Origin: a virus
Direction: 5' to 3' (one strand)
DNA: 64,000 nucleotides
Virus record (IMG/VR): IMGVR_UViG_3300008448_014963
Coordinates: 1 to 64,000 of that record
The translations under genes were made by a program, and so were the position numbers. The stretch's first letter is position 1, and the number at the start of each line of letters is the position of its first letter. The notes beneath the pieces were generated by a model. It was given only the letters and a program-made list of their open reading frames with translations, ran no database searches and was not told where the DNA came from. Positions 1 to 22,759 of this stretch are shown piece after piece.

Positions 1-1329
1 GTAGTTAAAGAGGTTAAAAAATTAATCTATGAGAAGTTCAAAAAATATGATGCAGTAAGTGGAACTAGTGATTGGAGTAAGGTTTATGCAAGCTACCCAA
101 AAGTAAGTTCTACATTAAGAGCTAATACTGCTAATGTTATTAAAGATGTTAAGAATGGATTGAGAAAGAGCTACAAAGAGCTCGAGAATGATAAAACTGG
201 AAATATAACGCCAGAATTTTACACAATTCTATTAAATTATAAAGAAACTAATGAATCCTTGGGAACAAATTTGAAATTGGTTTCTTTTGATAGTTTTATA
301 AAAAAAAAATTAAACGAGGGATTTGACGTTGAGGCTGTTAAGTCAGGTAGAAACGTCCCTCGTGGCGGAACTTCAGGAGTTGGAGCTAAGAAGGATCCAG
401 TAGGTGAGGCTAATCCTGCAACTCCTTTTAAAACTAAAGAAGAAGGCAATTTTTTTAGAGTTTATGTAAATGAAAAGGATCCAGAATATGCTAAAAAAAT
501 ACAGCTTGACAAGAGCGGAGAATTCAATAATAAATTTATAAGAAAAGCTTTTGCTCAGTATGGTCAGCAGTATTTGAAAGAAATCAAAGATGGTACCTAT
601 AAAATTTCAGGGGAAACAGAGGTTCAAGTCTTAAGTAACGATCAGATTAAAAAAGTTTATGACTATTTAAAGACTGAAGTTCAAAATAATCCAACGAAAT
701 GGTTTAGTGGTTTCGCCGGTGGAAGTGGGGAAGTCAAAGTAGAAATTTTACCAACAGGAAACACGTTTTATGTCCAAATAGATTTGGAGGATGCAAACGA
801 GGCTTTACTTCTTTATTCAAATTATACAGCATCTTATTTTTCTAATTTCAACAAAGGAGTTTCAGGATATACAAGATTCGATGCAGATCTAAACATTCCA
901 CAGGGCAAAGAGACTGATCCATCATCTTGGCAAATTGCTTTCAGAGATGGTCAAGGAACATTTTCACTTAAAGAGGTTGGAAAAGGAACAGTAGCAGGAA
1001 AAATTACTGGAAAAGAAAAACAGAAACAAGCAGCTACCGAAGAAAAGATGAAAAGGACATATACAGATGCCCAATATCAGGAGATGGTTTCTGAACTTCT
1101 CATGAATATGAAAGGAATTAATACAGCTTACGAAGGTGGACAGGTTCAAAAATTATTCAGAGAGAAAATTAAAACTCAAGGTGATTTAAATGCTTTGAAT
1201 GATGCTTGGGGTTTGAAAGATGGTGACACACTTAAGCAATGGTTATATGATGATACTCTTTGGCCACAAGTTAAAAAAATCTTGAAAGAAAAAGGTCTTG
1301 ATGTAAGTATGATGGCTGCTGGGGAATAA
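1..1329 (+). CDS. 5'-truncated protein of unknown function
   Basis: The frame is open from base 1 to the stop at 1329, so the gene begins upstream of the window and 442 C-terminal residues are visible. The first possible internal start (TTG at 160) is not needed, because codons upstream of it read as ordinary protein (VVKEVKKLIYEKF at the edge). The protein is hydrophilic, Lys/Glu/Gly-rich and has no signal peptide or membrane segment. It has a Lys-rich stretch around residues 335-350 and ends DVSMMAAGE. I do not recognise the family. It is followed by a strong hairpin terminator at 1357-1389, so it is the last gene of its unit. Confidence 0.75.
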   Translation, partial: VVKEVKKLIYEKFKKYDAVSGTSDWSKVYASYPKVSSTLRANTANVIKDVKNGLRKSYKELENDKTGNITPEFYTILLNYKETNESLGTNLKLVSFDSFIKKKLNEGFDVEAVKSGRNVPRGGTSGVGAKKDPVGEANPATPFKTKEEGNFFRVYVNEKDPEYAKKIQLDKSGEFNNKFIRKAFAQYGQQYLKEIKDGTYKISGETEVQVLSNDQIKKVYDYLKTEVQNNPTKWFSGFAGGSGEVKVEILPTGNTFYVQIDLEDANEALLLYSNYTASYFSNFNKGVSGYTRFDADLNIPQGKETDPSSWQIAFRDGQGTFSLKEVGKGTVAGKITGKEKQKQAATEEKMKRTYTDAQYQEMVSELLMNMKGINTAYEGGQVQKLFREKIKTQGDLNALNDAWGLKDGDTLKQWLYDDTLWPQVKKILKEKGLDVSMMAAGE

Positions 1330-1940: not shown

Positions 1941-3362
1941 ATGTGTGGAATTTTAGTAGCTAAGAACCCGAGCGAGGAACGGGTTTTGTCAATATCACAT
2001 AGAGGTACAGAATACTCTATGGTCCAACATAAAGATCTTTCATTAGTTCATCATCGTCTACCTATTCAAACATTAGATGGAGATAATTGGTCACAGCCAA
2101 TTCAAATAGGGGAGAATAGATGGTTGTTGTTTAATGGAGAAATATTCAACTACTCCGGGGATTTTGAATCTGACACTGCATATTTACAAAACCTTTTTAG
2201 TAGTTTTAATTTTTCTGGTATAGGCATGTTACAAGCTATCTACGAGCCGCATGTGGTTTCTTGGGATGGTTTTTGGGCAATAGTTCTAGTCGATACAGAA
2301 AAAAGGGAAGTTTATGCTTTCACTGATCCTCTAGGTAAAAAATGCTTATATAAAAACGACAGAGGGGAGGTTTGCTCAGAAATAAAAGGTTTATACGAAA
2401 AAGAGGATCCTGTACTTTATAATCCTGCCTTCTTCAGTGGAGTAGTTAAATTTGGATATGTTCCTACAAACGAAACTCCTTTCATGAATATCCAAAAACT
2501 CGAACCTAATAGATTTTACAGGTGGTCTTTGGATCATCCAATAAAAGTTGAGATTTCAAATCCTTATTATAACTTTTACTCTTTTGATGCGGGATTAGAG
2601 ACTTATGATGATAGAATGGACTGGCTTTGGCAAAAGATGGAAAACTCTGTTAAATCAAGACTTCTGTCTAAAAATTATCCAACATCCCTTTTGCTTTCTG
2701 GAGGATTGGATTCTGCTATAATAGCAGGACTATTACTAAAATTAGATGCAAATGTAAGTTTTTATTCTATATCAAATGGTGAAGATGAACAGTATGTTCA
2801 AGAATGTGAGAAATATTGGGAAATTTCTTCAAAAAGATTAAACTACGGAGTAGATTTAGAAACTGAAGAAGGAAAGAAGACCCTTCTAGAAATCTACCAA
2901 AAATGGAACGAGTCTCCTGTTGATCTTGGAAGTGTAATTCCTCAGTATCATTTATTCGATGCAATTAGGAAGGGTACAGATACTAGAATAGTAATTTCTG
3001 GTGATGGTGCAGATGAATTGTTCGGAGGATATAGAAGAATTAATGAATACGACTCTCAAAGCTCTGATATCTTTCATGAATTAACACATTATCATTTACC
3101 AAGATTAGATAAGCTTTCAATGGCTCACACGTTAGAGTTACGGAGTCCTTTCCTAAATCATGATGTGGTAAGGTTTGCTTTACATCTTCCTTTTGAAGAA
3201 AGGAAAAATAAGAAAATCCTGAAGGATACTTTCAAGGGATTAATTCCAGATTCGGTTATAGAAAGAAAGAAATTGCCTTTGAAAAATCAAATGATAGTCG
3301 ACGATCAAACATCTTACAGAAAGAAGATAGTCGAATTATTTGTTATGGGATCCGTTAGCTAA
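1941..3362 (+). CDS. asnB: Asparagine synthase (glutamine-hydrolysing), short form
   Basis: A 473-residue class II glutamine amidotransferase fused to an ATP-pyrophosphatase synthetase. The N-terminal nucleophile is Cys2 (MCGILVAKN). Glutaminase residues follow in HHRLPI, FNGEIFN and SDTAYL. The synthetase PP-loop SGGLDSA starts near residue 253, and SGDGADELFGGY lies near residue 353. These are the AsnB signatures; the reaction is aspartate plus glutamine plus ATP to asparagine. It is about 80 residues shorter than E. coli AsnB (about 554), mostly at the C-terminus. It ends in a 27-nt convergent overlap with the RimK-like gene. Relatives also amidate other carboxylates, so the substrate might be a sugar acid or protein rather than aspartate. 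Confidence 0.88.
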   Translation: MCGILVAKNPSEERVLSISHRGTEYSMVQHKDLSLVHHRLPIQTLDGDNWSQPIQIGENRWLLFNGEIFNYSGDFESDTAYLQNLFSSFNFSGIGMLQAIYEPHVVSWDGFWAIVLVDTEKREVYAFTDPLGKKCLYKNDRGEVCSEIKGLYEKEDPVLYNPAFFSGVVKFGYVPTNETPFMNIQKLEPNRFYRWSLDHPIKVEISNPYYNFYSFDAGLETYDDRMDWLWQKMENSVKSRLLSKNYPTSLLLSGGLDSAIIAGLLLKLDANVSFYSISNGEDEQYVQECEKYWEISSKRLNYGVDLETEEGKKTLLEIYQKWNESPVDLGSVIPQYHLFDAIRKGTDTRIVISGDGADELFGGYRRINEYDSQSSDIFHELTHYHLPRLDKLSMAHTLELRSPFLNHDVVRFALHLPFEERKNKKILKDTFKGLIPDSVIERKKLPLKNQMIVDDQTSYRKKIVELFVMGSVS

Positions 3363-4820
3363 AACAATTTCCACACCTGCAATAGGATTTCCCTTTGCAT
3401 CTCTAGGTGAGTAACCTTCAGGTCGATCTGTAATTACAAAATCTTCAGAAGGATCTACAATTAATCCTGCAGAACTTAAGAAGTCCCTGTTCAATAATAA
3501 AGGAGTACTTTTTTCTGTTCTGTCTACTAGAGAGAATTTGACTTTTCTGTATACTATTCCGTTAAAATCTACGTCAAGGTTAACTACCGATCTATGATAG
3601 GTTTTTTCTCCGACTTCGGCTTTAGATTGTCCAACTATTTTATTTCTGAATTCTTTGTCACCTATCTTCCAGTTTACATATCCATCAACTTCCTCTATAA
3701 AGTCCGCATGGAGTGAGCAAGAGGTAGATCCGTTTCCTGTATCTAGTTTTCCAACAAAAGAGCCAACCCCTGGGATCGAAATCATTTCTCTGAACCCAGT
3801 TACTTTTTTAGGTTTAACCCAATTCTTCTTATCCAAAAGAAAATCTAAGATATAATCAGTTACTGGTATTTTAGTAGTTTTTTCGATACCAGTAGTTCCT
3901 GGTGATGCGTTGACTTCTAAAACGAATGGCCTTTGATCCTGTTTATCTACGATAATATCTACTCCGCACCAGAGGCATCCGGTTGCTTTTGCTGATTCAA
4001 TTGCTATTTTTTCGATTTCTGGTGAAAGCTCTACTTGTTCCGTTGCACCACCTAATGAAAAGTTTGTTCTAAAATCCCCTTCAATCTTAATTCTTTTCAT
4101 CGCTGCTATAACTTTGTACTCTCTGCCTAATGAATCATTAGTTTCAGCAACAACGTGTATTCTTAAGTCATATTCAGCATCAATTTTTTCTTGAAGAACT
4201 ATTTCAGTCCCAGGAGCTAGGTGCCAAATTGCTTGCAGAGTTGATACAAGAGAAGGCCTAGAATCAATCATAAAAACACCTATTCCTTTAGTACCAGAAA
4301 GAAATTTACAAACTACTGGGTAATTACCTCCAACCTCAGCAACCGCTTTATCTATATCAGCAGGAGATGAAATCAGGGACGTTTTAGGAACAGGAATACC
4401 ATTGATTTCAAGCTTTCTAGTTGTTTGTAATTTATCTTCGCAAATAATGACAGATTCATACGAATTGACGCAAGGAAATCCAAGGTCTTCCATTTTCTTG
4501 AAAAATCCTTTGGCTGCGTTATTCTTAATAGAAGATCTTCTTGTTAAAACTACAGTTCTATCTAAATAGATTTCCTTGGGTTTATCTCCGTTTGAAGAAA
4601 TTAAAAATGTTCCCTTTAAAGTCTTTTGTATTGATCCTTTTTCTGTATCAATGATAATACAGCGTACACCCCTTTCCTCACAGATTTTCATGATCTTATC
4701 TGTAGTTGGAGCGTTTTTTAGACTTTTTCCAAGCTTTGTTGTAAGAATAACAACGGTCAAAGGTCTATCTTTCCCTTTAATTCCTTTAAAAATAAATTTC
4801 TCCAACAGGGTATTTTCCAT
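3336..4820 (-). CDS. RimK-like ATP-grasp glutamate ligase fused to RimB-like retropepsin-fold domain
   Basis: A 494-residue fusion. Residues about 80-330 form a RimK-type ATP-grasp ligase: NSYESV, then CEDKLQTT, PVVCKFLSGTKGIGV (ATP loop), an R-rich strand with MKRI, RTNFSLGG, and the Mg-binding EVNASPGTTGIE. RimK adds glutamates to the C-terminus of ribosomal protein S6 in E. coli. Residues about 345-480 match the PF05618 domain (annotated ATP-dependent zinc protease, RimB/retropepsin-like), with LDTGNGST and SCSLHADF; DTG is the aspartic protease motif. In enteric bacteria RimB and RimK are separate neighbours; here they are one chain. The ORF extends to a TTG at 4844, but that lies in the terminator T-run, so ATG 4820 is chosen. 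A TATATAT box lies only 4 nt upstream of that ATG. Confidence 0.82.
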   Translation of the reverse strand: MENTLLEKFIFKGIKGKDRPLTVVILTTKLGKSLKNAPTTDKIMKICEERGVRCIIIDTEKGSIQKTLKGTFLISSNGDKPKEIYLDRTVVLTRRSSIKNNAAKGFFKKMEDLGFPCVNSYESVIICEDKLQTTRKLEINGIPVPKTSLISSPADIDKAVAEVGGNYPVVCKFLSGTKGIGVFMIDSRPSLVSTLQAIWHLAPGTEIVLQEKIDAEYDLRIHVVAETNDSLGREYKVIAAMKRIKIEGDFRTNFSLGGATEQVELSPEIEKIAIESAKATGCLWCGVDIIVDKQDQRPFVLEVNASPGTTGIEKTTKIPVTDYILDFLLDKKNWVKPKKVTGFREMISIPGVGSFVGKLDTGNGSTSCSLHADFIEEVDGYVNWKIGDKEFRNKIVGQSKAEVGEKTYHRSVVNLDVDFNGIVYRKVKFSLVDRTEKSTPLLLNRDFLSSAGLIVDPSEDFVITDRPEGYSPRDAKGNPIAGVEIVLANGSHNK

Positions 4821-4886: not shown

Positions 4887-5441
4887 TTAACTAAAGAACT
4901 TATCAAATCTTATAACTTTTTGAGTTTGTTCCTCTTTTTCGTTTTCTAGATCAGATTCATCTTCTTCCTCGGAATCGTCTTCATCTTCGTTATCATCTTC
5001 ATCTTCATCTTCATCATCTTCAGTGCCTTCCTCAGATTCTTCAGTGTCTTCTTCAGTATCTTCTTCAGTATCTTCTTCTGATTCCTCCTCAGTATCCTCT
5101 TCAGATTCCTCTTCAGTATCTTCCTCAGTTTCTTCTTCAGTATCCTCCTCAGTTTCTTCTTCAGTATCCTCTTCAGATTCCTCGTCAGATTCTTCTTCGG
5201 TATCTTCCTCAGATTCCTCTTCAGTATCCTCTTCTGATTCTTCTTTAGTGTCTTTTACTTTATTAGACTTTTTAGAGGTTTTTTCAGTTTTCTCCTCTTC
5301 TTCATCTTCAGAATCTTCTTCCTCTGTTTCCTCGTTTTCCTCTTCTTCTTCAATTTCCATATCGCTCCAGAAAGATTTTCTTGGATTCTGAATAGGATTC
5401 GCAGAACTGTATTCTTCGAAAGTCATTATTTTTTTACTCAT
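4887..5441 (-). CDS. Highly acidic low-complexity protein with capsid-targeting-like leader
   Basis: A 184-residue protein. The N-terminus MSKKIMTFEEYSSANP is followed by a basic/aromatic stretch (RKSFWSDME), then about 120 residues made almost only of Glu, Asp, Ser and Thr in imperfect EEDTEEESEED units, and a short ordered C-terminus ending VIRFDKFFS. Acidic prohead core and scaffold proteins of T4-like phages have comparable composition, and the leader resembles those of its four neighbours. Its start overlaps the stop of the upstream gene by 4 nt. A terminator follows. The function is not known; prohead core or internal protein is inference. The Ser-rich open frame on the other strand (5023-5391) is its shadow. 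Confidence 0.8.
   Translation of the reverse strand: MSKKIMTFEEYSSANPIQNPRKSFWSDMEIEEEEENEETEEEDSEDEEEEKTEKTSKKSNKVKDTKEESEEDTEEESEEDTEEESDEESEEDTEEETEEDTEEETEEDTEEESEEDTEEESEEDTEEDTEEDTEESEEGTEDDEDEDEDDNEDEDDSEEEDESDLENEKEEQTQKVIRFDKFFS
4960..5260 (-). repeat. Imperfect tandem codon repeat (Glu/Ser/Thr/Asp)
   Basis: Short units of GAA/GAG, TCT/TCA, GAT and ACT codons repeat imperfectly through most of the acidic gene. Synonymous variation between units (GAG/GAA, TCT/TCC) suggests selection on the protein rather than a very recent DNA expansion. Confidence 0.7.
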
Positions 5442-5704
5442 CTGTTTTGATTTTTTTCTGTTAGACCTATTGATTGTGCGCTGCCAGTTTCAGTTGCTCC
5501 ATATCCTGGATAATCAATTTTTGATTGTCCTTTGAATATAGAATCCTGGAAACCAACATAAGCATAAGCTTCTTCTGGTGTTATTTTATGAAATCCTGTT
5601 CTATCCTCTTTACTAAGATTTTCTGGATTCCATGGATCTTGTATAACTTTTAGAAAATCTTTATAACTTAGGATTTCCCTTTTTGTTACGTTTTTTTGAT
5701 TCAT
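5438..5704 (-). CDS. Small protein of unknown function (88 aa)
   Basis: 88 residues, start ATG at 5704. The N-terminus contains KREILSYKDFLKVIQ, again the K-x-x-(Y/F)-x-x-F pattern seen in the neighbouring genes. The rest is polar with no recognised domain (EEAYAYVGFQD, DYPGYGATETG). It overlaps the acidic-protein gene by 4 nt (ATGA type) and follows the 235-residue gene by 15 nt, so the three form one minus-strand operon. Confidence 0.7.
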   Translation of the reverse strand: MNQKNVTKREILSYKDFLKVIQDPWNPENLSKEDRTGFHKITPEEAYAYVGFQDSIFKGQSKIDYPGYGATETGSAQSIGLTEKNQNR

Positions 5705-5719
5705 TTTATATTTAATAAT

Positions 5720-6427
5720 TTAGAACTGAAGAACGTCTGTTAATCCTGTTTTCATTGCCTTTTGGAAAATGTTAGGATCTCTTGTTTCGGCTTTTTCAAT
5801 TTCTCCTGCTAGTTTTTGTTTGTCACCTTGATTTATGCTACCTGAAAGAATATCACCAAGATTAAAACCACAGATTTTATCGCCAATCATATTTTCAACA
5901 TTGTTCATGAAACCAGTGTTGTTAATAGCATTAGTTAAAGCTTCTCTTAAGCCAGCAGCGATTGTTGCTCCTAGTCCAGAATTCATATCTAGTCTTAGAC
6001 CTAGTTTTGGTAACAAATAGTCTATTCCCCTTTCTTGCAAAGTTTCTGATAAACCCTCTACGATTGCTCTTGCCCAGTTTTTACAAGATCCTTTACCGAA
6101 GTAACTTCCAAGTTCAGTAATATTTACTCCTTCAATTACGTTTCTTATCAATTGATAAAAGAATGAAGGCTGACCTTGATCATCGAAAGGATCAATACCC
6201 AATTTTTCAGCTGCCCAGTCAATAACATAATCCTTGAAAGTGTCAGTAAAACCTCCTCCTAGCGAACCTAAAATAGAACTAAATATGTTTTCGTTTATCT
6301 CTTGTTCAGATAAGCCCTCGGACTTCATTCTAAGATATTCATTTTCTAAGATAGCCATGTCTTGCGATTGGTTGCCTGAAGCTTTCTTAGATTCTGAGAT
6401 AAACTGGGAATATTTTCTTATTACCAT
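5720..6427 (-). CDS. Putative internal/prohead protein with T4-like capsid-targeting leader
   Basis: 235 residues. The N-terminus MVIRKYSQFISESKKAS closely resembles the T4 internal-protein capsid-targeting peptide (MKTYQEFIAEA), including an I-x-E sequence (ISE, residues 10-12) of the kind cut by the T4 gp21 prohead protease. The body is rich in Gly and amphipathic helices (GSLGGGFTDTF, GATIAAGLREALTNA) and has no catalytic motif I know. It is the first gene of the minus-strand unit 6427 to 4887. A TATATAT box lies about 20 nt upstream of the start. The virion-internal role is inferred from the leader only. Confidence 0.7.
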   Translation of the reverse strand: MVIRKYSQFISESKKASGNQSQDMAILENEYLRMKSEGLSEQEINENIFSSILGSLGGGFTDTFKDYVIDWAAEKLGIDPFDDQGQPSFFYQLIRNVIEGVNITELGSYFGKGSCKNWARAIVEGLSETLQERGIDYLLPKLGLRLDMNSGLGATIAAGLREALTNAINNTGFMNNVENMIGDKICGFNLGDILSGSINQGDKQKLAGEIEKAETRDPNIFQKAMKTGLTDVLQF

Positions 6428-6446
6428 GGTTCGTAGACTTTTATTG

Positions 6447-6453
6447 TATATAT
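6447..6453 (-). promoter_or_regulatory. TATATAT box, minus-strand unit
   Basis: On the minus strand GATATATACAAT lies about 20 nt upstream of ATG 6427, in the 60-nt divergent gap. The gap holds a second box for the plus strand. Confidence 0.55.
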
Positions 6454-6473
6454 CATTTTAATAGACGAAATCC

Positions 6474-6481
6474 GATATATA
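6474..6481 (+). promoter_or_regulatory. GATATATA box, plus-strand unit
   Basis: GATATATA ends 6 nt before ATG 6488; the intervening AGAGAA is purine-rich. It is the partner of the minus-strand box at 6447-6453. Confidence 0.55.
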
Positions 6482-6487
6482 AGAGAA

Positions 6488-6898
6488 ATGGGGAGAATTG
6501 AAAAAATAGATCAATTTATTAAAACGAATCCTACCAAGTATGGTTTGGATGCAGATGGTTGTTTTTTCGAAGTCAAAGAGGAATTCCAAATAGAATGTGT
6601 TGAAGAATATAAACCTGGGGGAAGCTTCTTAGGTGTTGAGGTTTTAGAACCAGTATGGACGAAGATGAAAGCATTACCTGGCGACATTTTAATTGTAAAT
6701 AAGAATTCAAGTTATATTATCCCAAAAGGGGAAGAAGCATACATTGAGTGTAAACCATCACAGCTATCACAAGGACAAGGTTTGAAGCAAGATGTTTATT
6801 CTAAAGATAAATTGATTAAAGTAGGAAAGGATGTTACGAAAACTAAATCAATGCCTTTCAAAGACAGGATCAAAATAACTCTATCAAGGCCAATATGA
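6488..6898 (+). CDS. Protein of unknown function (136 aa)
   Basis: 136 residues, begins MGRIEKIDQFIKTNPTKYG. The body looks beta-rich (EVLEPVWTKMKALPGDILIVNKN, SSYIIPKGEEAYIECKPS) and ends in a basic tail. It has no known motif. Its stop overlaps the next start by 4 nt (ATGA), so the two genes are translationally coupled. The N-terminal IEKIDQFI is a weaker form of the leader found in the neighbours. Confidence 0.7.
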   Translation: MGRIEKIDQFIKTNPTKYGLDADGCFFEVKEEFQIECVEEYKPGGSFLGVEVLEPVWTKMKALPGDILIVNKNSSYIIPKGEEAYIECKPSQLSQGQGLKQDVYSKDKLIKVGKDVTKTKSMPFKDRIKITLSRPI

Positions 6899-7449
6899 GA
6901 AAGATAAAAACGTTTAGTCAATTCAGTTTGTTTGAGAGTTCTGCTGCCGGAAATAGAGACCAAACTTTTGAGTTACCGTTCAGACACTCGTCGAATGATC
7001 CGAGATATGGATATAGCAGCAAAAGTTTTGTAGACGATCTAAAGTCTATTTTTGTAGAGAAACCACATCTCAAAAGAGAAATTTTATCATTTATTTCAAG
7101 AAATATTGGAATTTCGAATCTAGAAGATTTAGCTTCTAAGCCATTTGCACTAATTTCTGAAATAGTTCCCGAGATAGAAAGAATTATTGATGCTGGAGAA
7201 TACGAACCCGAATTAACAATGCCAGGTGGAGCTTTATTATTTATAAGAAATAAAACATTCAGAGATGGATCAAGTGGTGATTTCTATATCAACAGAAAGG
7301 GTAATAAAATAGAAGTTGTCACGGAAGATCGTAATGGAATCGAAAAAGTAGAAATGTACGAAGTTGGAAGATTTCCTTTTGACAGATATGAATTTTCTCA
7401 AGAAGAAAGTGACGAACTCAAGGCTTTAATTAGGGGAAAGAATGCCTAA
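6895..7449 (+). CDS. Putative internal/prohead protein with capsid-targeting-like leader (184 aa)
   Basis: 184 residues. The N-terminus MRKIKTFSQFSLFESSAAG contains KTFSQF followed by the L-x-E sequence LFE (residues 13-15), as expected for a gp21-type prohead protease site. The remainder is a mixed helical and beta protein (GGALLFIRNKTF, DFYINRKGNKIEVVT) with no known family. Its TAA stop interlocks with the stop of the convergent gene (4-nt overlap). Packaging into the head is inferred from the leader. Confidence 0.7.
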   Translation: MRKIKTFSQFSLFESSAAGNRDQTFELPFRHSSNDPRYGYSSKSFVDDLKSIFVEKPHLKREILSFISRNIGISNLEDLASKPFALISEIVPEIERIIDAGEYEPELTMPGGALLFIRNKTFRDGSSGDFYINRKGNKIEVVTEDRNGIEKVEMYEVGRFPFDRYEFSQEESDELKALIRGKNA

Positions 7450-8314: not shown

Positions 8315-8938
8315 ATGAGCCCCAATTTTTTAATTATTGCATATTTCACCAAATCTACTAGATATGAAGAACTCTCGCAAAAGCTTAAGCAGTCTTTAGA
8401 TGAATTTGGTTTGCCTTATCATATTCAGGGAATAGATGATTTGGGTTCTTGGGAAAAGAACACACATTTTAAAGCTTATTTTATTAAGCAGTGTTTAGAG
8501 AACTTTAGTCAGGATCTTCTTTGTGTTGACGTGGATGCAGTTTTTAAGGCTTATCCGAGTTTGATTGCAACTTTGGAGTGTGACCTAGCTTATCGGACCG
8601 AAAACTTTAGATGGAGGAAAGATGAAGCCCTTTCTGGTACTTTGTTTCTAAAGAACAATGACAAAGTGAGAGGTTTTGTAAATAGGTGGATAGAATTAAA
8701 TGAGTCGACTCCTGCTGAGCGGATGAAACCTGAAACTTGGGAGCAGAAGAATATGCAAACTGCACATCGTGAATTCAATGATCTGGTTTATTACAATCTG
8801 CCTCCGGAATACACGTTTATTTTTGATCACACTAGGAACATGTATCCTGGTCTTCATCCAGTTATTGAACATTTTCAAGAAAGCCGTAATGTTCAAAGAA
8901 ATAATCTGCATTCTCGAGGTATAATTAGAAAGAAATAA
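8315..8938 (+). CDS. DxD glycosyltransferase-like protein
   Basis: 207 residues. A GT-A-type fold is suggested by alternating strands (FLIIAYFT at the start) and by the metal-binding DVD at residues 72-74 in LLCVDVDAVF. DEALSGTLFLKNN follows at the place where nucleotide-diphospho-sugar transferases bind acceptor. The C-terminus is basic. It is the first gene of the glycan island and lies 2 nt before the next gene. Donor and acceptor are unknown. Confidence 0.65.
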   Translation: MSPNFLIIAYFTKSTRYEELSQKLKQSLDEFGLPYHIQGIDDLGSWEKNTHFKAYFIKQCLENFSQDLLCVDVDAVFKAYPSLIATLECDLAYRTENFRWRKDEALSGTLFLKNNDKVRGFVNRWIELNESTPAERMKPETWEQKNMQTAHREFNDLVYYNLPPEYTFIFDHTRNMYPGLHPVIEHFQESRNVQRNNLHSRGIIRKK

Positions 8939-8940
8939 GG

Positions 8941-9678
8941 ATGGAATTAAAGTACGCTGTTGTTAGTTCAGATTCAAATCCGGAGTATTTAGATTTTTGG
9001 CCTTATGTGGCAAAAATGTGGAAGAGGATAGGGATCGAGCCTGTACTTTTGTATATTGGAAATCAAACTCCTTCTGAAGATCTTTCGAGATATGGTAAAG
9101 TATTTTTCTTTGAATCGATTCCAGATTGGCAGATTTACCAACAAGCGCAATGTATAAGGTTCTGGGCAGCTAAGATTTTGGATGGTCCTTTCATAATATC
9201 AGATATTGATATGCTTCCTATATCTGAGGATTACTATAAGCATGGAGCTGCTTCTCTGATTGGTAATGGAATAGTCTCTTATAGCTCTGATATAATTAAT
9301 TATAGGTGGTATAAAACTAATCCCCAGTATCCTATGTGCTATCTAGCAGGAGACCCTGGATCTTTTGTTGATATGTTAGACCTCCAAGACATAGATCATA
9401 AACACTTCTTCAGAAGAATTATGAAAATGAACTTAAGGTTCGGAACAGATCAGAAGTTTTTTTATAATCAATCTAAAGTTAAAATTCATATCCATCTGAA
9501 GCATCTTTCTAGAGGATGGGTGGAAGAAAAATATGCTTCAAGAAGATTAGATAAAGCAGTTTGGCCAAAAAATGACTATAATCCAGAGGAATATATAGAT
9601 TGTCATTTACCCCGCCCCTTGTCACAAAATCTAGGGATCTGTAAATTATTATTTAAAAAGTTAGGAATTGACACATGA
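8941..9678 (+). CDS. DxD glycosyltransferase-like protein
   Basis: 245 residues. A DID metal-binding motif sits at residues 88-90 in FIISDIDMLPIS, after an N-terminal strand-helix unit (KYAVVSSDSNPEY). GTDQKFFYNQ near residue 165 resembles the acceptor-side region of GT-A sugar transferases. The ATG follows an AAGG sequence by 1 nt, and the stop overlaps the next gene by 4 nt. Donor is unknown. Confidence 0.65.
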   Translation: MELKYAVVSSDSNPEYLDFWPYVAKMWKRIGIEPVLLYIGNQTPSEDLSRYGKVFFFESIPDWQIYQQAQCIRFWAAKILDGPFIISDIDMLPISEDYYKHGAASLIGNGIVSYSSDIINYRWYKTNPQYPMCYLAGDPGSFVDMLDLQDIDHKHFFRRIMKMNLRFGTDQKFFYNQSKVKIHIHLKHLSRGWVEEKYASRRLDKAVWPKNDYNPEEYIDCHLPRPLSQNLGICKLLFKKLGIDT

Positions 9679-10472
9679 GATTATCTATTGTTTTACCTAC
9701 AGGAGGCAATGATGGTTTAAGAACCAGGAACTTCAATGAATGTTTAAGATGTATACAAGAACAGTCTTTTAAGGATTATGAGGTCATTGTTGTTGAACAG
9801 GCCTTAGATAATAATTTCTACAAGGTTGGTAATCCTTTTTATAAGCATATACCTATTAAGGATCCTCAGAATAGAGGTTTCAATTTGAGCTGGTGTAGAA
9901 ATGTCGGTGCGAAAGAGGCGACAGGGGATCTCTTAGTTTTAATGGATTCTGACTTTGTTTTTGAAAAAGATTACTTTCAAAAAATATCTGAATTCCAGGG
10001 AAACTTTGCCGCTGGAGCAGAAACGTATTATTGGTGTAATACAGAAGCACCAACATCAGTGTGGTTGAGAAACAGAGATTTCAATTATTTTAGGACGCAG
10101 GGAAATGGACCCAGAGACCCTGTATTCAAATTTAGATCAATGACTCGCGGATGTGGATTCGGTGCTATTCTTGTTTATAACAGAAACTGGTTCTGGGAAA
10201 CTTTTGGCGGATACAATGAGAATTTTTTTAAATATGGCTGGGAAGATAAAGCGGCAACAGAAACTATTAAATTTTTATTAGGAAGAACTGATGAATCTAT
10301 GGACAGAATTCCTTACGAAGCTGCACATCTAAGTCATTTCGGTAAAGATGTCAGAAATATGCCAACTAACGAAAGGCTATTCAATCAATACAGTTCTTTA
10401 AATCAGGCGATTCTGGTTGAAAGGATTAAAGGAGCGGAAGTTGGAAAAAAAAGTACTCCTTCTCTAATATGA
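9675..10472 (+). CDS. Family 2 / GT7-like glycosyltransferase
   Basis: 265 residues. The N-terminal nucleotide-binding strand MRLSIVLPTGG is typical of GT2. The DxD is DSD at residues 91-93 (LVLMDSDFVF). The C-terminal GGYNENFFKYGWEDKA (about 176-191) matches the GG(F/Y)-x-E-x-(F)-x-GWGxED motif of galactosyltransferase-type GT7 enzymes and supplies the catalytic acid pair. A phosphopeptide-like or polysaccharide acceptor cannot be told apart. It overlaps both neighbours by 4 nt. Confidence 0.8.
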   Translation: MRLSIVLPTGGNDGLRTRNFNECLRCIQEQSFKDYEVIVVEQALDNNFYKVGNPFYKHIPIKDPQNRGFNLSWCRNVGAKEATGDLLVLMDSDFVFEKDYFQKISEFQGNFAAGAETYYWCNTEAPTSVWLRNRDFNYFRTQGNGPRDPVFKFRSMTRGCGFGAILVYNRNWFWETFGGYNENFFKYGWEDKAATETIKFLLGRTDESMDRIPYEAAHLSHFGKDVRNMPTNERLFNQYSSLNQAILVERIKGAEVGKKSTPSLI

Positions 10473-11599
10473 ATAACGGACAAAGAATCACCAGGGAGGG
10501 TAAAAGGAGAATCGTCAACAGGTCCAAACCTATACCAAGTAAGAATCTGAATAACGTTGCAGATAAAAATGAAATTGACTTTACGAATGAAAAAATAAAC
10601 GTAGTGATAAATTCTACAGTAACCCAATATTTTAATCAACTTTTGTATTTAAGTACTACTAAAGGGGAAGATGATAATCTCCCTTTTTTAAAACCCTTAC
10701 CTAAAACAAATATATTTAACATAAGCGATTTAGCAGTCGAAAAAAATCTTGAAGTATTAAACGCTTATAAAAATGTAAGTATTCCAAGATTGGTAGAGAA
10801 TTATGATTTAGTAACTATAATACCTTTTAGAGGGCGGTGGCTACATCTCGAAAAAACACTTAATTCTTTGATAGATTCTGCTGATAAATTAGATATTAAA
10901 ATAGGATTTGTAATTATTGAAAATTCTAAAGCTCCAATTTTCAATAAAGATTTGTTTTCCAATCTTGCAAATTTTCATTATGTTTGGCTTAATTCTAATG
11001 GTAATATATTTAATAAATGTATCTGTCATAATTTGGGTGTTGCCATTTCTCAGTCTCAGTATGTCCATTTTCACGATTGCGATCTATTAGTTCCCGATAA
11101 TTTCTATAGTTCATTATTAAATGAGCTATCAAAAAACCAAGCTGTCCAGGCATTTTCTGGTAGAAAGGTAAATTATTTGGACGAAGATTCAACTAAAGAA
11201 TATTTTACAACAGGAGATTTATCACCAATCACAAAAAACACATCAAATTTCAGAGAAGGTGTCTATGGAGCTCCTGGAGGATCAATTGCTCTTACTAGAG
11301 ATCTTTTCGATAGAGTAGGCGGATTTGATCCTCATTTTTTCTGGGGATATTCTATTGAGGATAAATTTTTCTGGGATAAGGTTGAAAAGCTTAATCATTT
11401 CACATCACTTGAAAATCCCAAAATTGATCTTTACCATCTTTGGCATCCACCTGGGTGGGGAAAAAATCCATATGAAAGATTTGAGCAACGCATATACCAG
11501 TTATTTGCATCATGTAGACCAGGAAGTGAACATTATCTCAAAATAGCTAAGGAGCTTTACAATATAACAATAGAAAAATTAGTTACGGATGAGAAATAA
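10469..11599 (+). CDS. Family 2 / GT7-like glycosyltransferase with N-terminal extension
   Basis: 376 residues. The first 110 residues are an Asn/Lys-rich extension without a recognised fold. The catalytic domain starts at DLVTIIPFRGRW, with DCD as the DxD at residues 203-205 (FHDCDLLVP). GGSIALTRDLF and VGGFDPHFFWGYSIEDKFF follow, the GT7-type GGFD...EDxxF motif. The last 11 nt overlap the epimerase gene. It is probably a second enzyme of the type encoded just upstream, with a different linkage. Confidence 0.78.
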   Translation: MNNGQRITREGKRRIVNRSKPIPSKNLNNVADKNEIDFTNEKINVVINSTVTQYFNQLLYLSTTKGEDDNLPFLKPLPKTNIFNISDLAVEKNLEVLNAYKNVSIPRLVENYDLVTIIPFRGRWLHLEKTLNSLIDSADKLDIKIGFVIIENSKAPIFNKDLFSNLANFHYVWLNSNGNIFNKCICHNLGVAISQSQYVHFHDCDLLVPDNFYSSLLNELSKNQAVQAFSGRKVNYLDEDSTKEYFTTGDLSPITKNTSNFREGVYGAPGGSIALTRDLFDRVGGFDPHFFWGYSIEDKFFWDKVEKLNHFTSLENPKIDLYHLWHPPGWGKNPYERFEQRIYQLFASCRPGSEHYLKIAKELYNITIEKLVTDEK

Positions 11600-12506
11600 A
11601 ATATTGGTTACTGGCGGAACCTCACATTTAGGAAAAAGCCTTTATCGACTTTTGCCAGATGCTACATTCATAGAGGGAAAAAAGGAACTAAATCTTTTAG
11701 ATTTTGAGTCTACATTAAAATATTTTAAATCTAAAAACCCATATAGAGTTGTGCATCTAGCTTCGAAAGTTGGTGGTATCAAGAGCAACATTGAACACCC
11801 TTTCGAATATTTTTATGAAAATATCCTAATCAATACGAACGTTTTTAGGGCATGTATAGAATTACAGATTCCGAGATTAACTTCTATATTATCTACATGT
11901 GTATACCCAGCTATCAGTCCATATTATCCTATTTTAGAAGAAGATATTCTTTCCGGAGATCCTGAGAAAACCAATCGAGGATACGCACTATCGAAAAGAT
12001 TTCTAGCAGAAATGACACAACTTTATAATTTAAAACATTCTTCTCAGTATAATTATATTATTCCTTGTAATCTTTTCGGGAACGAAGAAACATATGATCC
12101 AGACAAAACGCATTTCTTGACCTCATTAATTTATAAATCAGCAAAATCTATTTTATCTGGTGAAAAAAATCTCGAGATGTTTGGATCAGGAAAAGTACTC
12201 AGACAATTTGTAACGTATGATGATTTGGCTAGGATAATCCATTTTTGCATTGAAAATGATATAACAGAATCCTTTAATTTTACACCTGACTATAATCTGA
12301 CACTTAAGCAATATTCGGATATAGTTGAAGAGATTTCTTGTAATAAGATAAAAATTTCGTTCAATTGTCAAGGGCCGGACGGGATTTTTAGAAAGGATGG
12401 ATCCAACTCGAGATTAAAACAAATTGCTCCTAATTTTGAATTTACTGATTTAAAATCAAGTATAAAAACAGTATTAGAATTCTATCTAAACAATGATCAC
12501 ATTTAG
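11589..12506 (+). CDS. fcl: GDP-L-fucose synthase / ColC-type epimerase-reductase
   Basis: 305 residues, an extended short-chain dehydrogenase. NADP-binding is GGTSHLG at residues 8-14, and the HLASKVGGIKSN block is diagnostic of GDP-fucose synthase. Catalytic residues by motif: Ser-x-Cys in STCVYP, Tyr-x-x-x-Lys in GYALSKR, and the epimerase His in DKTHFLT. FGSGKVLRQFV replaces the usual LREF. The family converts GDP-4-keto-6-deoxymannose to GDP-L-fucose; ColC is a close relative acting on the 3-deoxy compound. A ColD-type gene lies 7.5 kb downstream, so either product, or both, is possible. It overlaps its neighbours by 11 and 14 nt. Confidence 0.85.
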   Translation: MRNKILVTGGTSHLGKSLYRLLPDATFIEGKKELNLLDFESTLKYFKSKNPYRVVHLASKVGGIKSNIEHPFEYFYENILINTNVFRACIELQIPRLTSILSTCVYPAISPYYPILEEDILSGDPEKTNRGYALSKRFLAEMTQLYNLKHSSQYNYIIPCNLFGNEETYDPDKTHFLTSLIYKSAKSILSGEKNLEMFGSGKVLRQFVTYDDLARIIHFCIENDITESFNFTPDYNLTLKQYSDIVEEISCNKIKISFNCQGPDGIFRKDGSNSRLKQIAPNFEFTDLKSSIKTVLEFYLNNDHI

Positions 12507-13233
12507 CAACTTGGGAAAACATGGTAAGATGGGGAATCAATTTTTCCAAATTTCGACTGTTTTTTCCCACTGCATGAAATATAACTACGATTATATTTTT
12601 CCTGAGTGGAAATATAACAGGCATTTAGATAAACCGATAAAGACAGGCAAAGTATCACAAGTGCTAACTCAATTTAGGGAAAAGGATCCTTTTAGTTATT
12701 CCCAAATCCCACAGATTGACAATATTGATTTGATAGGATATTTCCAGAACGAGAACTATTTTTCTTGTCATAAAAAGGAAATAGTAGATTTATTTGATCC
12801 TAATGATGTCATAAAATCTAAGGTTTATTTGACAGACTTTGATGGACTTACTGCAATACATGTTAGAAGAGGAGATTATTTAAATTTTCCTTTACATCAC
12901 CCAGTTCCAAGTTTAAGTTACTACAATACTGCAATATCGAATCTAAAGAATATTTCTAAGAACTTTATGGTATTTTCTGACGATATCCCTTGGTGTAAAG
13001 AGCAATTTCCCTCTAATTTTTTATACTCGGAAGAAACTGATGAATTTATCGATTTATTTAAGATGTCTTTGTGTTCAAATTTTATTATAGCTAATTCTAG
13101 TTTTTCTTGGTGGGGTTCATACCTATCAAAGAATCCTTCGAAAAAAATATATGCTCCGGATAATTGGGTAGGTAGAGGCTATTCAGGTACAGGTTGGAGA
13201 CAGGTTTATCGAAAAGAAATGATTATATTATAA
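12493..13233 (+). CDS. Alpha-1,2-fucosyltransferase, GT11 family
   Basis: 246 residues. It shows all the GT11 blocks: GKMGNQFFQI near residue 11, GYFQNENYF near 82, HVRRGDY at 123-129 (binds the GDP donor), FMVFSDDIPW near 155 and the NSSFSWWGSYL block near 200. Family members transfer L-fucose from GDP-fucose to the 2-position of galactose; related enzymes accept GDP-colitose. It lies directly after the gene for the probable GDP-fucose synthase (14-nt overlap), so donor supply and transfer are encoded together. Confidence 0.88.
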   Translation: MITFSNLGKHGKMGNQFFQISTVFSHCMKYNYDYIFPEWKYNRHLDKPIKTGKVSQVLTQFREKDPFSYSQIPQIDNIDLIGYFQNENYFSCHKKEIVDLFDPNDVIKSKVYLTDFDGLTAIHVRRGDYLNFPLHHPVPSLSYYNTAISNLKNISKNFMVFSDDIPWCKEQFPSNFLYSEETDEFIDLFKMSLCSNFIIANSSFSWWGSYLSKNPSKKIYAPDNWVGRGYSGTGWRQVYRKEMIIL

Positions 13234-13234
13234 A

Positions 13235-13852
13235 ATGAAAATTCCTGGTATAGATAACATTTATTGTGTCAACTTAGAAAGAAGGTCCGATAGGAGGACA
13301 GAAGCATTTCAGGAGTTCAAAAAATTTAATTTAGATTTTGAATTTTTTACCGGGGTTGATGGTCACGAATTGAACGTTAAGTCTACTATAAAACCAGGAC
13401 ACGTTGGTTGTGTCATGTCTCATTTGAACTTATATAGATATTTAAAAAATGTAGAAGGCTCAATTTTTATGATTACTGAAGATGATGTCGTTTTTTCCCC
13501 TGATTTCATAGAGATATTTCTAAACGAGATCCAATCAGTACCTCAAGATTGGAACCTTTTATATTTTGGAGGAAATCACAACGGCATAGCCCCGCAAATG
13601 GTTTCACAAAAAATACACAGATTACAAAAAACATATACCACCCATTGTTATCTGGTAAAAAAATCAGCTTTAGATTGTTTGATAGAGGAATTTGATACTC
13701 CTAATATTTTTAATAGTGAAGTCGATGTTCATTTATCAAAAATACAAACTAAATTACCTTGTTATGGATTTATCCCCCCTATAGCATGGCAGAGAGATGG
13801 TTTCTCTGATATTGAGATGAAAACTGTTGAATATAATTTTTTAAAAAAATAA
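13235..13852 (+). CDS. GT25-family (LPS-type) glycosyltransferase
   Basis: 205 residues. It begins with IYCVNLERRSDRR, then FFTGVDG, the conserved VGCVMSHLNLYRYL block, and EDD at residues 82-84 (MITEDDVVF). These are the motifs of family 25 beta-galactosyl/glucosyltransferases that act on lipooligosaccharide or collagen-like acceptors. It starts 1 nt after the fucosyltransferase stop and its stop overlaps the next start. Confidence 0.85.
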   Translation: MKIPGIDNIYCVNLERRSDRRTEAFQEFKKFNLDFEFFTGVDGHELNVKSTIKPGHVGCVMSHLNLYRYLKNVEGSIFMITEDDVVFSPDFIEIFLNEIQSVPQDWNLLYFGGNHNGIAPQMVSQKIHRLQKTYTTHCYLVKKSALDCLIEEFDTPNIFNSEVDVHLSKIQTKLPCYGFIPPIAWQRDGFSDIEMKTVEYNFLKK

Positions 13853-14790
13853 TGCAAAATACATTTGTTTTTACTGAGGCTTTCAATTGTGGAAAAATTT
13901 TATCTGTATGCTTAGAATCTTTTCATAAACATCACGATACCAAGATTCATATTATCGGGACATCAAGGGATTTTCTTGAAGCCGGTGAAATAATTAATCA
14001 TCCCAATAACATTTTAATTAATTGGGACACCAATATATCTGCTAAAGAAAAATGGTCTTCAGGACACCAGGGTACTGCCTTAGCATTCGCTTCTGTACTT
14101 AAAGGAGATTTACATACAAATCAATATGTTATACATATAGATTCTGACTGTTTTTTTAAAGATGAATCAATAAGCGATATCATTGGAATGCTCCAAAATG
14201 GGTATGATATAATCGGATCTCCGAGACCTTACAAAAACAATTTAAGTGGAGTAAAAGGCCTCGATAATACGCCTGATTGTGTTTCAACCTATTTAATGGG
14301 GGTCAATACACTTAAAATACCGTCTTATGATTTTGAAACTTTTACAAGAATGTGCGGAGGATGGGCTTCTCCAACTGGCCACAGAGTACTTGATTTCTTT
14401 GATCCTGTCACACACTCTATAATATCAAATGGTGGAAAAATAGGGTTTCTGGACACTACTAACTATGGGGGTATAGATTTGAAAGGATCTAAGTTTAACG
14501 GATTTGAGTCGAATTTAAATTTTGATTGTGGCAAAAAAATCGCACATTTTGGGGGGGTGGGTTCAGGAAAAGCAGTAGCTGATAATTTATCAGCTCCACC
14601 AAAGGGATATGCCGATTGGGCATATTATAGATGGAATTTTTTCTCTCATCTTTTCTTTAACACTGAAAGATTAAATACCCCTCAGTCGACTTATTCGGAG
14701 CAGAATGATCACAATGGCAAGAGATGGTGTAACGGAGCAGCTAGCTTAGATATAATCAATAACGCAAAAAAAGATCTTAATCTAATATGA
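13852..14790 (+). CDS. DxD glycosyltransferase-like protein
   Basis: 312 residues. The GT-A domain has DSD at residues 97-99 in VIHIDSDCFF, preceded by a GHQGTALAFAS helix. The C-terminal half carries FDPVTHSII, GGKIGFLDTT and KIAHFGGVGSG, where His and Gly residues could bind metal and donor. I cannot assign a CAZy family with confidence. It overlaps the next gene by 4 nt. Confidence 0.7.
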   Translation: MQNTFVFTEAFNCGKILSVCLESFHKHHDTKIHIIGTSRDFLEAGEIINHPNNILINWDTNISAKEKWSSGHQGTALAFASVLKGDLHTNQYVIHIDSDCFFKDESISDIIGMLQNGYDIIGSPRPYKNNLSGVKGLDNTPDCVSTYLMGVNTLKIPSYDFETFTRMCGGWASPTGHRVLDFFDPVTHSIISNGGKIGFLDTTNYGGIDLKGSKFNGFESNLNFDCGKKIAHFGGVGSGKAVADNLSAPPKGYADWAYYRWNFFSHLFFNTERLNTPQSTYSEQNDHNGKRWCNGAASLDIINNAKKDLNLI

Positions 14791-15578
14791 TAAAACCAAT
14801 AGTTCAAAGAGAAGTACTCAAAGGATGGGGGGTAGACCCGGATAAATATTTCGGTTTATATGAATCCAATGTGGGGATACAAATAGATCCCATTTCGGAC
14901 CCTATCTGGATTAATGATCCATCTATATTCAAAGTTGCAGTGCAAGCAGAACCCCCATCAGTAAACAATTATTCAGTAGAGAAGTATCTTTTGAATAATG
15001 GAAGGAAGTATAATTTAATTCTTAGTTATTACGAATCTATTTTAACAAATTTAGATAATTCTGTACTAAATTATTTTGGGGGCACGTGGATTAAAGAGAT
15101 CAAAACGGACTTTGACAAATTCAAAACTGTTTCTTTCATAACATCTGACAAAAACTTTGCTGTCGGGCATAAAGTAAGGATGAAAATAATAGAACTACTA
15201 AAAGGAAAATTTGATTTATACGGGAGGGGATTTAATGAAATCTCCAATAAAATGATAGGGCTAGAAAACTATATGTTTTCAATCGTAATAGAAAATGAGT
15301 TTATGAAAAACTGGTTCACTGAAAAAATCGTTGATTGTTTTATGACTAAAACCGTTCCTATTTATAAGGGATGTCCAAATCTTGGGGATTTTTACGAAGA
15401 GAAAGGTATAATAAAATTTGAAACGATAGAAGAACTAGATCAAATTTTAACTTCTTTAAATCATGATAAATACCAATCTATGCTAGAGAGCATTGAAAAG
15501 AATTATCAATCCGCTTTAATAGATCAGCCTTTCGAAAAAAGAGTCGAAAACACAATTAAAAAATATGCAACTAAATAA
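14787..15578 (+). CDS. GT10-like alpha-1,3/4-fucosyltransferase
   Basis: 263 residues. The C-terminal half has the GT10 signature: FDLYGRGF near residue 142, then FSIVIENEFMKNWFTEKIVD and TVPIYKG across residues 164-195. This matches the family pattern F-x-(I/L)-x-x-E-N, YxTEK, VPIxxG. The N-terminal acceptor domain is divergent. GT10 enzymes use GDP-L-fucose. It is the second fucosyltransferase family in the island and overlaps the carbamoyltransferase gene by 14 nt. Confidence 0.8.
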   Translation: MIKPIVQREVLKGWGVDPDKYFGLYESNVGIQIDPISDPIWINDPSIFKVAVQAEPPSVNNYSVEKYLLNNGRKYNLILSYYESILTNLDNSVLNYFGGTWIKEIKTDFDKFKTVSFITSDKNFAVGHKVRMKIIELLKGKFDLYGRGFNEISNKMIGLENYMFSIVIENEFMKNWFTEKIVDCFMTKTVPIYKGCPNLGDFYEEKGIIKFETIEELDQILTSLNHDKYQSMLESIEKNYQSALIDQPFEKRVENTIKKYATK

Positions 15579-17190
15579 TTCGATTCTTTCACTTTACGGA
15601 TCACACGATTCTAATATTTCTGTTGTCACAGAAACTGGAGACTATTATACTTACGAGCTAGAAAAGATCAATGGGATCAGACATTTTTCGTTAGAAAAAG
15701 ATCCCAATTATTATGATACTCTTTTGGCTGTAAAGGATATCCTTTTGAATGATTTTAATAATACTGCAACATTCACAACCTGCCTTTATGGTCAGTGTAG
15801 TGAAAAAATAATTCGTGCAGTAGAAGAGATCTTTAATTGTACTGAATTCAAAGAAATTGGACATCATTTATCCCATGCAGCTACAGCTTTTTATACATCA
15901 GGATTTTCAGAATCGTTAATTGCAACATACGATTCAGGAGGTCACGACAATGGTGATGTGTCAACTTTCAATTTTTTCATTGCAGACAGAAAAAATGGGA
16001 TCAAGCATCTGGAAAAACTGGACTTGAATGTCTGTGATCCTTATACATGTTTAGCAATTCCCCTGAATTGTATAAGTAAAAAAATATCACCAATCGATAT
16101 AGGATCAGAAATTCATGATTTATCAATCACTTACCAGATTAGCGAATCATACTTAACTCTTGCAGGTAAAATTATGGGACTTTCTGGATACGGTAAACTT
16201 AGGGAAGATTGGATAGAATTTTTTGAGGAATATTATAACGGGCCTTGTGACGATAGATACAGGAAAGAGTTAGGTGTAAAAATAGGCTTAGAGCTGAAAA
16301 ATATAAACAGTTTAGATTGGGAAGATTCCCTAGACGTTGCAGCAACATCTCAGCATGTATTTAACCTGTTAGTGTATAAAAAAATATTGGTGTATTTAAA
16401 AAAATTCAAAGTTCCTGTTTGTTTATCTGGTGGAGGTGCCATGAATATAATATTTAATCAATATTTAAGAAATAAAATAGAATATCCTGTGCACGTTCCA
16501 CCAAATCCTGGAGATTGCGGACTTTCTTTAGGTTTTCTGTTAAATGAAAATAACCCAACACATAAGATTGAATGTGCTTTCAACGGAATAGATTTAATAG
16601 ATAGATATAATCTACCGACTCTAATATCTGAATATTCAGCAAAAGAATGTTCGATAGATTTCCTTACTGGATTGATTCGTGATGGAAAAATCATAGGTAT
16701 TGTTTACGGAAGAGGCGAAGTAGGCGAAAGAGCTCTTTTAAGAAGAAGTATTGTTGCTTCTCCTTCCATCACTGGGATTAAAGACAAATTAAACAAAATA
16801 AAAAATAGAGAAAATTGGAGACCTTTAGCACCCGCAATTTTAGAGGAATACACTGACCAATATTTTACGTCCTTCACTTCCTCTCCTTATATGAGTTTCA
16901 ATCCGACGGTTAGACCGGAAGTGTCTGATATAGTAAAAGAGATAGTCCATATTGACGGGACAGCAAGAGCACAAACTTTAAATTTTAAGGATAACCCTTT
17001 CGGTTATAATCTCGTTAAATCATTCTTTGAGAAAACAGGAATACCTATTCTAATAAACACATCCTTCAATAATAGAGGAAAATCTATTCTTTCTACGATT
17101 TCCGAAGCTCTTGATATATTAGACAATACTGATATTGACCACGTTTGGATTGAAGGATATCTTTTCGAAAAGAAAAAAAATATCCAATGA
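15565..17190 (+). CDS. NodU/CmcH-type O-carbamoyltransferase
   Basis: 541 residues. The N-terminal ASKHA-fold domain begins SILSLYGSHDSNISV and has the metal-binding GHHLSHAATAF (99-109) and ATYDSGGHDNGD. The C-terminal YrdC-like/carbamoyltransferase part has GRGEVGERALLRRS, NRENWRPLAPAI, DGTARAQT and ILINTSFNNRG, all family hallmarks. These enzymes move a carbamoyl group from carbamoyl phosphate to a sugar hydroxyl, as in Nod factors and antibiotics. Here the likely substrate is a sugar of the phage-encoded glycan. Slightly shorter than most homologues (560-600). Confidence 0.9.
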   Translation: MQLNNSILSLYGSHDSNISVVTETGDYYTYELEKINGIRHFSLEKDPNYYDTLLAVKDILLNDFNNTATFTTCLYGQCSEKIIRAVEEIFNCTEFKEIGHHLSHAATAFYTSGFSESLIATYDSGGHDNGDVSTFNFFIADRKNGIKHLEKLDLNVCDPYTCLAIPLNCISKKISPIDIGSEIHDLSITYQISESYLTLAGKIMGLSGYGKLREDWIEFFEEYYNGPCDDRYRKELGVKIGLELKNINSLDWEDSLDVAATSQHVFNLLVYKKILVYLKKFKVPVCLSGGGAMNIIFNQYLRNKIEYPVHVPPNPGDCGLSLGFLLNENNPTHKIECAFNGIDLIDRYNLPTLISEYSAKECSIDFLTGLIRDGKIIGIVYGRGEVGERALLRRSIVASPSITGIKDKLNKIKNRENWRPLAPAILEEYTDQYFTSFTSSPYMSFNPTVRPEVSDIVKEIVHIDGTARAQTLNFKDNPFGYNLVKSFFEKTGIPILINTSFNNRGKSILSTISEALDILDNTDIDHVWIEGYLFEKKKNIQ

Positions 17191-17912: not shown

Positions 17913-17926
17913 AAAATATTAATAGT

Positions 17927-18547: not shown

Positions 18548-18555
18548 AACATTAG

Positions 18556-18567
18556 TATATATAAATA
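18556..18567 (+). promoter_or_regulatory. TATATATAAATA box overlapping a start region
   Basis: TATATATAAATA contains the T4 late-promoter consensus TATAAATA (18560-18567). It ends 1 nt before the GTG start at 18569, so a transcript starting downstream of it would be leaderless or would begin inside the gene. Confidence 0.5.
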
Positions 18568-18568
18568 G

Positions 18569-19321: not shown

Positions 19322-19340
19322 AACTTCCTAGATTTTCTTG

Positions 19341-19349: not shown

Positions 19350-19358
19350 AATAAAGCC

Positions 19359-22746: not shown

Positions 22747-22759
22747 AACTTTACTCCTT

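What the first reader, a model, noticed from the sequence alone, without database searches (positions are those of the whole stretch)
4887..7449. Five consecutive genes share a capsid-targeting-like N-terminal leader
Leaders read IMTFEEYSS, ILSYKDFLK, IRKYSQFISE, IEKIDQFIK and IKTFSQFSLFE. They resemble the T4 internal-protein peptide MKTYQEFIAEA; two include I-x-E or L-x-E sites for a gp21-like protease. The proteins have unrelated bodies, as expected for packaged and injected effectors. This may be an undescribed set of ejected proteins acting early against host defence.
Basis: partly seen in the sequence, partly recalled or inferred. Interest (0 to 1): 0.68.

Follow-up and report, generated by a model that had tools for sequence, protein, structure and literature searches.

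The report
T4-like capsid-targeting leaders on phage proteins
Five neighbouring genes of an uncultured T4-related phage begin with the same short tag that phage T4 uses to load proteins into its head, and relatives of this phage put the tag on roughly two dozen different proteins, so these phages may pack far more protein cargo than T4 does.

Summary
All five leaders are present as quoted. The genes form two divergent late-type operons (three on -, two on +), syntenic in about 15 related IMG/VR contigs. Leader positions equivalent to T4 CTS residues 4 and 7 (the targeting residues of T4 IPIII) are invariant or nearly so in four of five families. The same regex on most of T4 finds IPI, IPII and IPIII. 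Adjacent [ILV]xE sites are conserved in the 235-aa and 184-aa proteins only. The window is a fragment, but relatives carry a gp21-like S77 protease fused to a scaffold of about 14 'ISYSEYLAE' repeats that resemble the leader. Leaders recur on about 25 protein families, including MoxR ATPases, DUF2201 metallopeptidases, adenylate kinase, RNA ligase and CHAP hydrolase (34 ORFs observed, 5.5 expected). A GATATATA box links leader operons to head genes. Packaging is well supported by inference. 'Injected anti-defence effectors' is not supported for these five: no family or fold match, and a conserved syntenic set looks more like prohead-core or internal head proteins. New variant of a known kind (T4 CTS and internal proteins).

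The parts
4887..5441 (-). 184-aa highly acidic protein (56% Asp+Glu), leader motif at both ends; likely prohead core cofactor
5400..5429 (-). its N-terminal leader IMTFEEYSSA (residues 5-14)
   Evidence: F4 and Y/F7 in 12 of 12 orthologues
4893..4916 (-). C-terminal copy of the motif, VIRFDKFF
   Evidence: present in 10 of 10 complete orthologues
5438..5704 (-). 88-aa protein with leader; body unknown
5645..5674 (-). its leader ILSYKDFLKV (residues 11-20)
   Evidence: Y4 and F7 in 13 of 13 orthologues
5720..6427 (-). 235-aa, mostly helical protein with leader; body unknown
6392..6421 (-). its leader IRKYSQFISE with predicted cleavage after ISE
   Evidence: [ILVM]xE in 14 of 15 orthologues
6290..6298 (-). 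predicted second cleavage site INE before NIFSS (residues 44-46)
   Evidence: invariant; same kind of site in 7 of 7 N-terminal cases, all leader proteins
6447..6454 (-). GATATATA box, putative late promoter of the minus operon
   Evidence: conserved in G002 and G005
6474..6481 (+). GATATATA box, putative late promoter of the plus operon
6488..6898 (+). 136-aa protein with the weakest leader; body unknown
6497..6526 (+). its leader IEKIDQFIKT (Ile at position 4, no cleavage site)
6895..7449 (+). 184-aa alpha/beta protein; residues 1-37 modelled as disordered
6904..6936 (+). its leader IKTFSQFSLFE with predicted cleavage after LFE, before SSAAG
   Evidence: F..F and [ILV]xE in 14 of 14 orthologues with varied residues
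3336..4820 (-). RimK-family glutamate ligase fused to a retropepsin-like domain, next gene downstream on the same strand; has its own GATATATA box
277..318 (+). leader-like LVSFDSFIKKKLNE inside a head-cluster protein cut by the record's left end (1-1329)
   Evidence: related G002 protein has LLSFNDFLSA internally

Best explanation
The leaders are a T4-type capsid targeting sequence in a T4-related phage whose capsid relatives mostly infect Bacteroidota. The five proteins are made late together with the head genes. Their leader (aromatic residues at positions 4 and 7) docks them onto the prohead core while the head forms, so they are enclosed. In at least two of them the gp21-like S77 protease then cuts after [ILV]xE and frees the mature protein inside the head. 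The core is probably the C-terminal half of the protease-scaffold fusion, about 14 tandem 14-residue repeats (ISYSEYLAE) of the same shape as the leader, so the leader may work by imitating one scaffold repeat. The five are most likely conserved internal or core head proteins; the acidic one, tagged at both ends, probably acts as a core cofactor. Shown: leader, its conservation, the sites, protease and scaffold in relatives, the shared promoter box. Inferred: packaging, cleavage, docking partner. Not shown: ejection into the host.
For: Leader statistics. Positions 4 and 7 kept while codons and other residues vary, the same positions that target T4 IPIII (PMC9026906). Positive controls: T4 IPI-III found at the first residue; the only start-anchored hit in cyanophage S-SM1, T4-GC190, is a virion protein by mass spectrometry (PMC3037559). 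S77 protease with GEL-HP and SSR motifs and gp23 capsid gene near the cluster in relatives. Scaffold repeats. GATATATA box shared with head genes. Leader region of the 184-aa protein modelled as disordered.
Against: No virion data for this group. Three of five lack an adjacent cleavage site and one has a degenerate leader. A leader-trained profile does not rank the scaffold repeats high. Head regions of cultured relatives PTm1, PAU and MaF61 show no excess of leaders. Some tagged proteins (adenylate kinase, pterin dehydratase) are not obvious head cargo.
Confidence: 0.75

Rival explanations
1. The five are packaged and injected effectors that act early against host defence, as T4 IPI-III do against GmrSD enzymes.
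For: Same leader type as T4 IPI-III, which share only the leader and are anti-restriction proteins (PMC12373910). Bodies unrelated to each other and to known families. The 136-aa and 184-aa bodies diverge faster than the 235-aa and 88-aa ones.
Against: Conserved syntenic block in about 15 genomes, unlike the variable T-even ip loci; the acidic protein looks like a core component; no anti-defence homology.
Confidence: 0.25
2. The leader directs the proteins to another virion part or assembly site (neck, tail or a membrane assembly centre) rather than the head interior.
For: Tagged families include CHAP and OmpA domains and a protein with tail-fibre-like collagen repeats, which could be tail or envelope associated.
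Against: Match to the T4 CTS at its functional residues, cleavage sites of head-protease type, and scaffold resemblance.
Confidence: 0.12
3. The leaders are chance or compositional similarity of short N-termini in an AT-rich genome.
For: The motif is short; about 5.5 regex hits are expected by chance in 315 ORFs.
Against: Far above shuffles; synonymous codon change with constant residues 4 and 7; kept in relatives whose 184-aa protein is only 34% identical.
Confidence: 0.03

Closest known systems
T4 capsid targeting sequence and internal proteins IPI, IPII, IPIII (MKTYQEFIAEA)
   Same: Ten-residue leader, aromatic at positions 4 and 7, [IL]xE site, unrelated bodies, gp21-type S77 protease in the same phage group
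   Different: About 25 tagged families instead of three, several of them enzymes; leader often followed by a second site [LIV]xE before GIFSS-like residues; tag also at a C-terminus; scaffold made of leader-like repeats
T4 gp67 acidic prohead core protein
   Same: Very acidic composition, presumed core location
   Different: No detectable homology; carries CTS-like motifs at both ends, which gp67 does not show
Tenacibaculum phage PTm1 prohead core scaffolding protein and protease
   Same: Same fused protease-scaffold architecture, 28% identical to the G002 protein
   Different: No ISYSEYLAE repeats and no leader excess in the 50 kb examined
Huge uncultured phage LR756500 (462 kb)
   Same: Capsid protein 43% identical, about a dozen proteins with leaders such as MKYIQTYKDFLNE, degenerate scaffold repeats
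   Different: Consensus shifted to MKYIxxYxDFLNE; relatives of the five bodies were not found there

Membership tests
T4-type capsid-targeted internal proteins | N-terminal leader with targeting residues at positions 4 and 7 | tested here: met
   Aromatic at both positions in every orthologue of four of the five families; the 136-aa family has Ile at position 4
T4-type capsid-targeted internal proteins | Protease site [IL]xE at the end of the leader | tested here: inconclusive
   Met in the 235-aa and 184-aa families, absent next to the leader in the other three; T4 tolerates targeting without processing (PMC9026906)
T4-type capsid-targeted internal proteins | gp21-like S77 protease encoded by the same phage | tested here: met
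   In relatives G002 and G006, over the Pfam cut-off, motifs aligned with T4 gp21; the window's own record is a fragment without that region
T4-type capsid-targeted internal proteins | Late expression with head genes | tested here: inconclusive
   Shared GATATATA box; promoter function not shown
T4-type capsid-targeted internal proteins | Present in the virion and cleaved there | not testable with these tools
   No proteome of this group; only a cyanophage leader protein (T4-GC190) is known from virions
Injected anti-restriction proteins (IPI-III type) | Ejection into the host and inhibition of a defence enzyme | not testable with these tools
   No homology in PHROGs, Pfam or NCBIfam
gp67-like acidic core protein | Acidic composition and homology to gp67 | tested here: inconclusive
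   56-70% Asp+Glu in orthologues; no family match, and low complexity defeats homology tests

The most novel reading that the evidence does not exclude
The targeting leader is a single copy of the 14-residue scaffold repeat, and this phage group uses scaffold imitation as a general cargo code to load some 25 unrelated proteins, including enzymes (MoxR ATPase-metallopeptidase pairs, adenylate kinase, RNA ligase, a peptidoglycan hydrolase), into the head for delivery.
Probability: 0.3. Interest if true: 0.78.

Novelty: new variant of a known kind. Interest (0 to 1): 0.6.

Why it matters
I found no account of how T4's targeting peptide recognises the prohead core. A phage group whose scaffold is a visible array of leader-like repeats suggests a testable answer. 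It also turns many 'hypothetical' genes of huge phages into predicted virion cargo that can be read straight from sequence, and it offers natural cargo-loading tags to test in laboratory phages.

Tried and rejected
Body homology: no matches for the five in PHROGs, Pfam or NCBIfam; no tblastn match in the phages collection for the three bodies searched. Fold search with the 184-aa model: nothing convincing (best Foldseek E 0.17; VIA Z at most 4.8). The 235-aa model was too weak to search (mean pLDDT 54). Classical T4 late promoter TATAAATA: not enriched; GATATATA found instead. Leader-profile scan: scaffold repeats do not dominate internal hits, so scaffold imitation is kept as a suggestion only. 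A YRG motif in G005:111786-112271 suggested an Alt-like ADP-ribosyltransferase, but Pfam and PHROGs gave nothing, so it is not claimed. Leaders in the head regions of PTm1, PAU and MaF61: background level.

Full report
What was checked. The five ORFs and leaders are exactly as described, except that they form two divergent operons, minus 6427-4887 and plus 6488-7449. The window is part of a 69,867-base IMG/VR record of a T4-related myovirus: gp5-like, gp6-like and PhoH genes are present. Relatives were found through the 235-aa protein and, with alignments, in about 15 contigs.

More than chance. A regex taken from the five leaders, with residue shuffles as control, gives 7 N-terminal hits in the 55 ORFs of G000 against 1.05 expected. 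In G000, G002 and G005 together (315 ORFs) a stricter form gives 34 against 5.55 expected, and with an adjacent [ILVM]xE 10 against 0.04; the latter is about 150 times denser at N-termini than inside proteins. The regex was made after seeing the five, so its value rests on the genes that did not enter it. Part of the count is orthologues of the same gene in the three contigs, so the hits are not all independent.

Positive controls. In T4 (bases 20,001 to 168,903) the regex finds IPI, IPII and IPIII at the first residue; of its four other hits three start at residue 13 or later and one is a short ORF that is not in the T4 annotation at that place. In cyanophage S-SM1 it gives two hits, one of them start-anchored: SSM1_190, T4-GC190, which was detected in purified virions (PMC3037559). 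This is a single case.

Agreement with T4 genetics. T4 IPIII targeting depends mainly on residues 4 and 7, and processing on 8 and 10; gp21 cuts after L/I-x-E (PMC9026906). Here residue 4 is aromatic and residue 7 is F or Y in every orthologue of four families. The 184-aa family keeps F..F and [ILV]xE followed by S in 14 of 14 (INE, VNE, IFE, LFE, LNE, LDE, ILE, LSE) although spacing and other residues vary. Synonymous codon changes show that the constraint is on the protein. The 136-aa gene is the weak member: Ile at position 4, no site, and no leader in two distant homologues. The 88-aa and acidic proteins have the targeting pattern but no adjacent site; in T4, Asp at position 10 blocks processing but not targeting (PMC9026906), so uncut cargo is possible.

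Machinery. The window lacks a head protease because, judged by synteny with G002 and G006, the record starts just after the capsid gene. In G002 and G006 an S77 protease and a gp23-type capsid protein lie about 10-13 kb from the leader cluster. The protease ORF (686 and 678 aa) keeps the GEL-HP and SSR motifs of T4 gp21 and continues into a scaffold of about 14 tandem 14-residue repeats, NISYSEYLAENLDK. The repeat matches the end of the leader and of T4's CTS (Y-x-E-[FY]-[IL]-A-E). In G002, 14 of 19 internal occurrences of that pattern are in this protein. Against over-reading: a leader-trained profile puts only one repeat in its top 40 internal hits.

A second site. [LIVM]xE followed by G/N, two hydrophobic residues and S/G/T occurs within the first 70 residues of seven non-redundant ORFs, all of them leader-bearing (for example LNE|GIFSS, INE|NIFSS), against two occurrences further inside. 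This looks like a two-step propeptide; it is inference from sequence.

Timing. GATATATA is 25.7-fold enriched within 60 bases upstream of ORFs. All eight copies in G000 lie upstream of genes in sense direction, including both leader operons and a baseplate gene (43648-44019, phrog_261). In G002 it precedes the protease-scaffold and neighbouring head genes. I read it as the late promoter; its function is inferred.

Breadth. In seven contigs, about 25 families carry the leader, some being chance hits. Identified bodies: DUF2201 metallopeptidases and MoxR-type ATPases in adjacent pairs, a T4 Rnl1-type RNA ligase, CHAP, OmpA and pterin dehydratase domains and an adenylate kinase whose domain starts at residue 32, after the leader. 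The 462-kb uncultured phage LR756500 (capsid protein 43% identical) has about a dozen, such as MKYIQTYKDFLNE. The 50-kb head regions of PTm1, PAU and MaF61 do not. The set is thus an expansion in one part of the group. Capsid relatives mostly infect Bacteroidota, so a Bacteroidota host is likely but unproven.

What the five do. The block is conserved and syntenic, and one protein is acidic with the tag at both ends (C-terminal VIRFD[KN]FF in 10 of 10 complete orthologues). That fits conserved core or internal head proteins better than a variable set of anti-defence effectors. The literature already treats T-even internal proteins as a diverse injected set recognised by the leader (PMC12373910; PMC3012670), so the concept is known; the size of the repertoire, the enzymes in it and the scaffold resemblance were not met in the papers I could search. 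Several contigs (G003, G005, G006) are near-identical in parts and do not count as independent.

Noticed in passing
G002:C1:32083-34143 (L018:12083-14143): S77 protease fused to a scaffold of about 14 tandem 14-residue repeats ISYSEYLAENLDKN, each with an [LI]xE site; degenerate form in LR756500.
   Followed up: partly
window 3336-4820: RimK-family glutamate ligase fused to a retropepsin-like domain, directly downstream of a gene for a Glu/Asp-rich protein; a phage glutamate ligase beside an acidic head protein is suggestive.
   Followed up: no
L040:14780-18237 and L042:2798-5226 (G005): Two separate pairs of MoxR-type ATPase and DUF2201 metallopeptidase, all four proteins with leader-like N-termini.
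   Followed up: partly
L003:6845-7621 (record position 65844-66620, outside the window): CHAP-domain peptidoglycan hydrolase with leader MRKIKDYYDFLNEG, possible packaged lysin.
   Followed up: partly
window 6428-6487 and whole record: GATATATA box, a candidate late promoter that differs from T4 TATAAATA; all 8 copies in the record are upstream of genes in sense direction.
   Followed up: partly
window 8315-23501: Long run of genes that look by eye like glycosyltransferases and nucleotide-sugar enzymes between head and baseplate genes, suggesting elaborate glycan synthesis; not searched against families.
   Followed up: no
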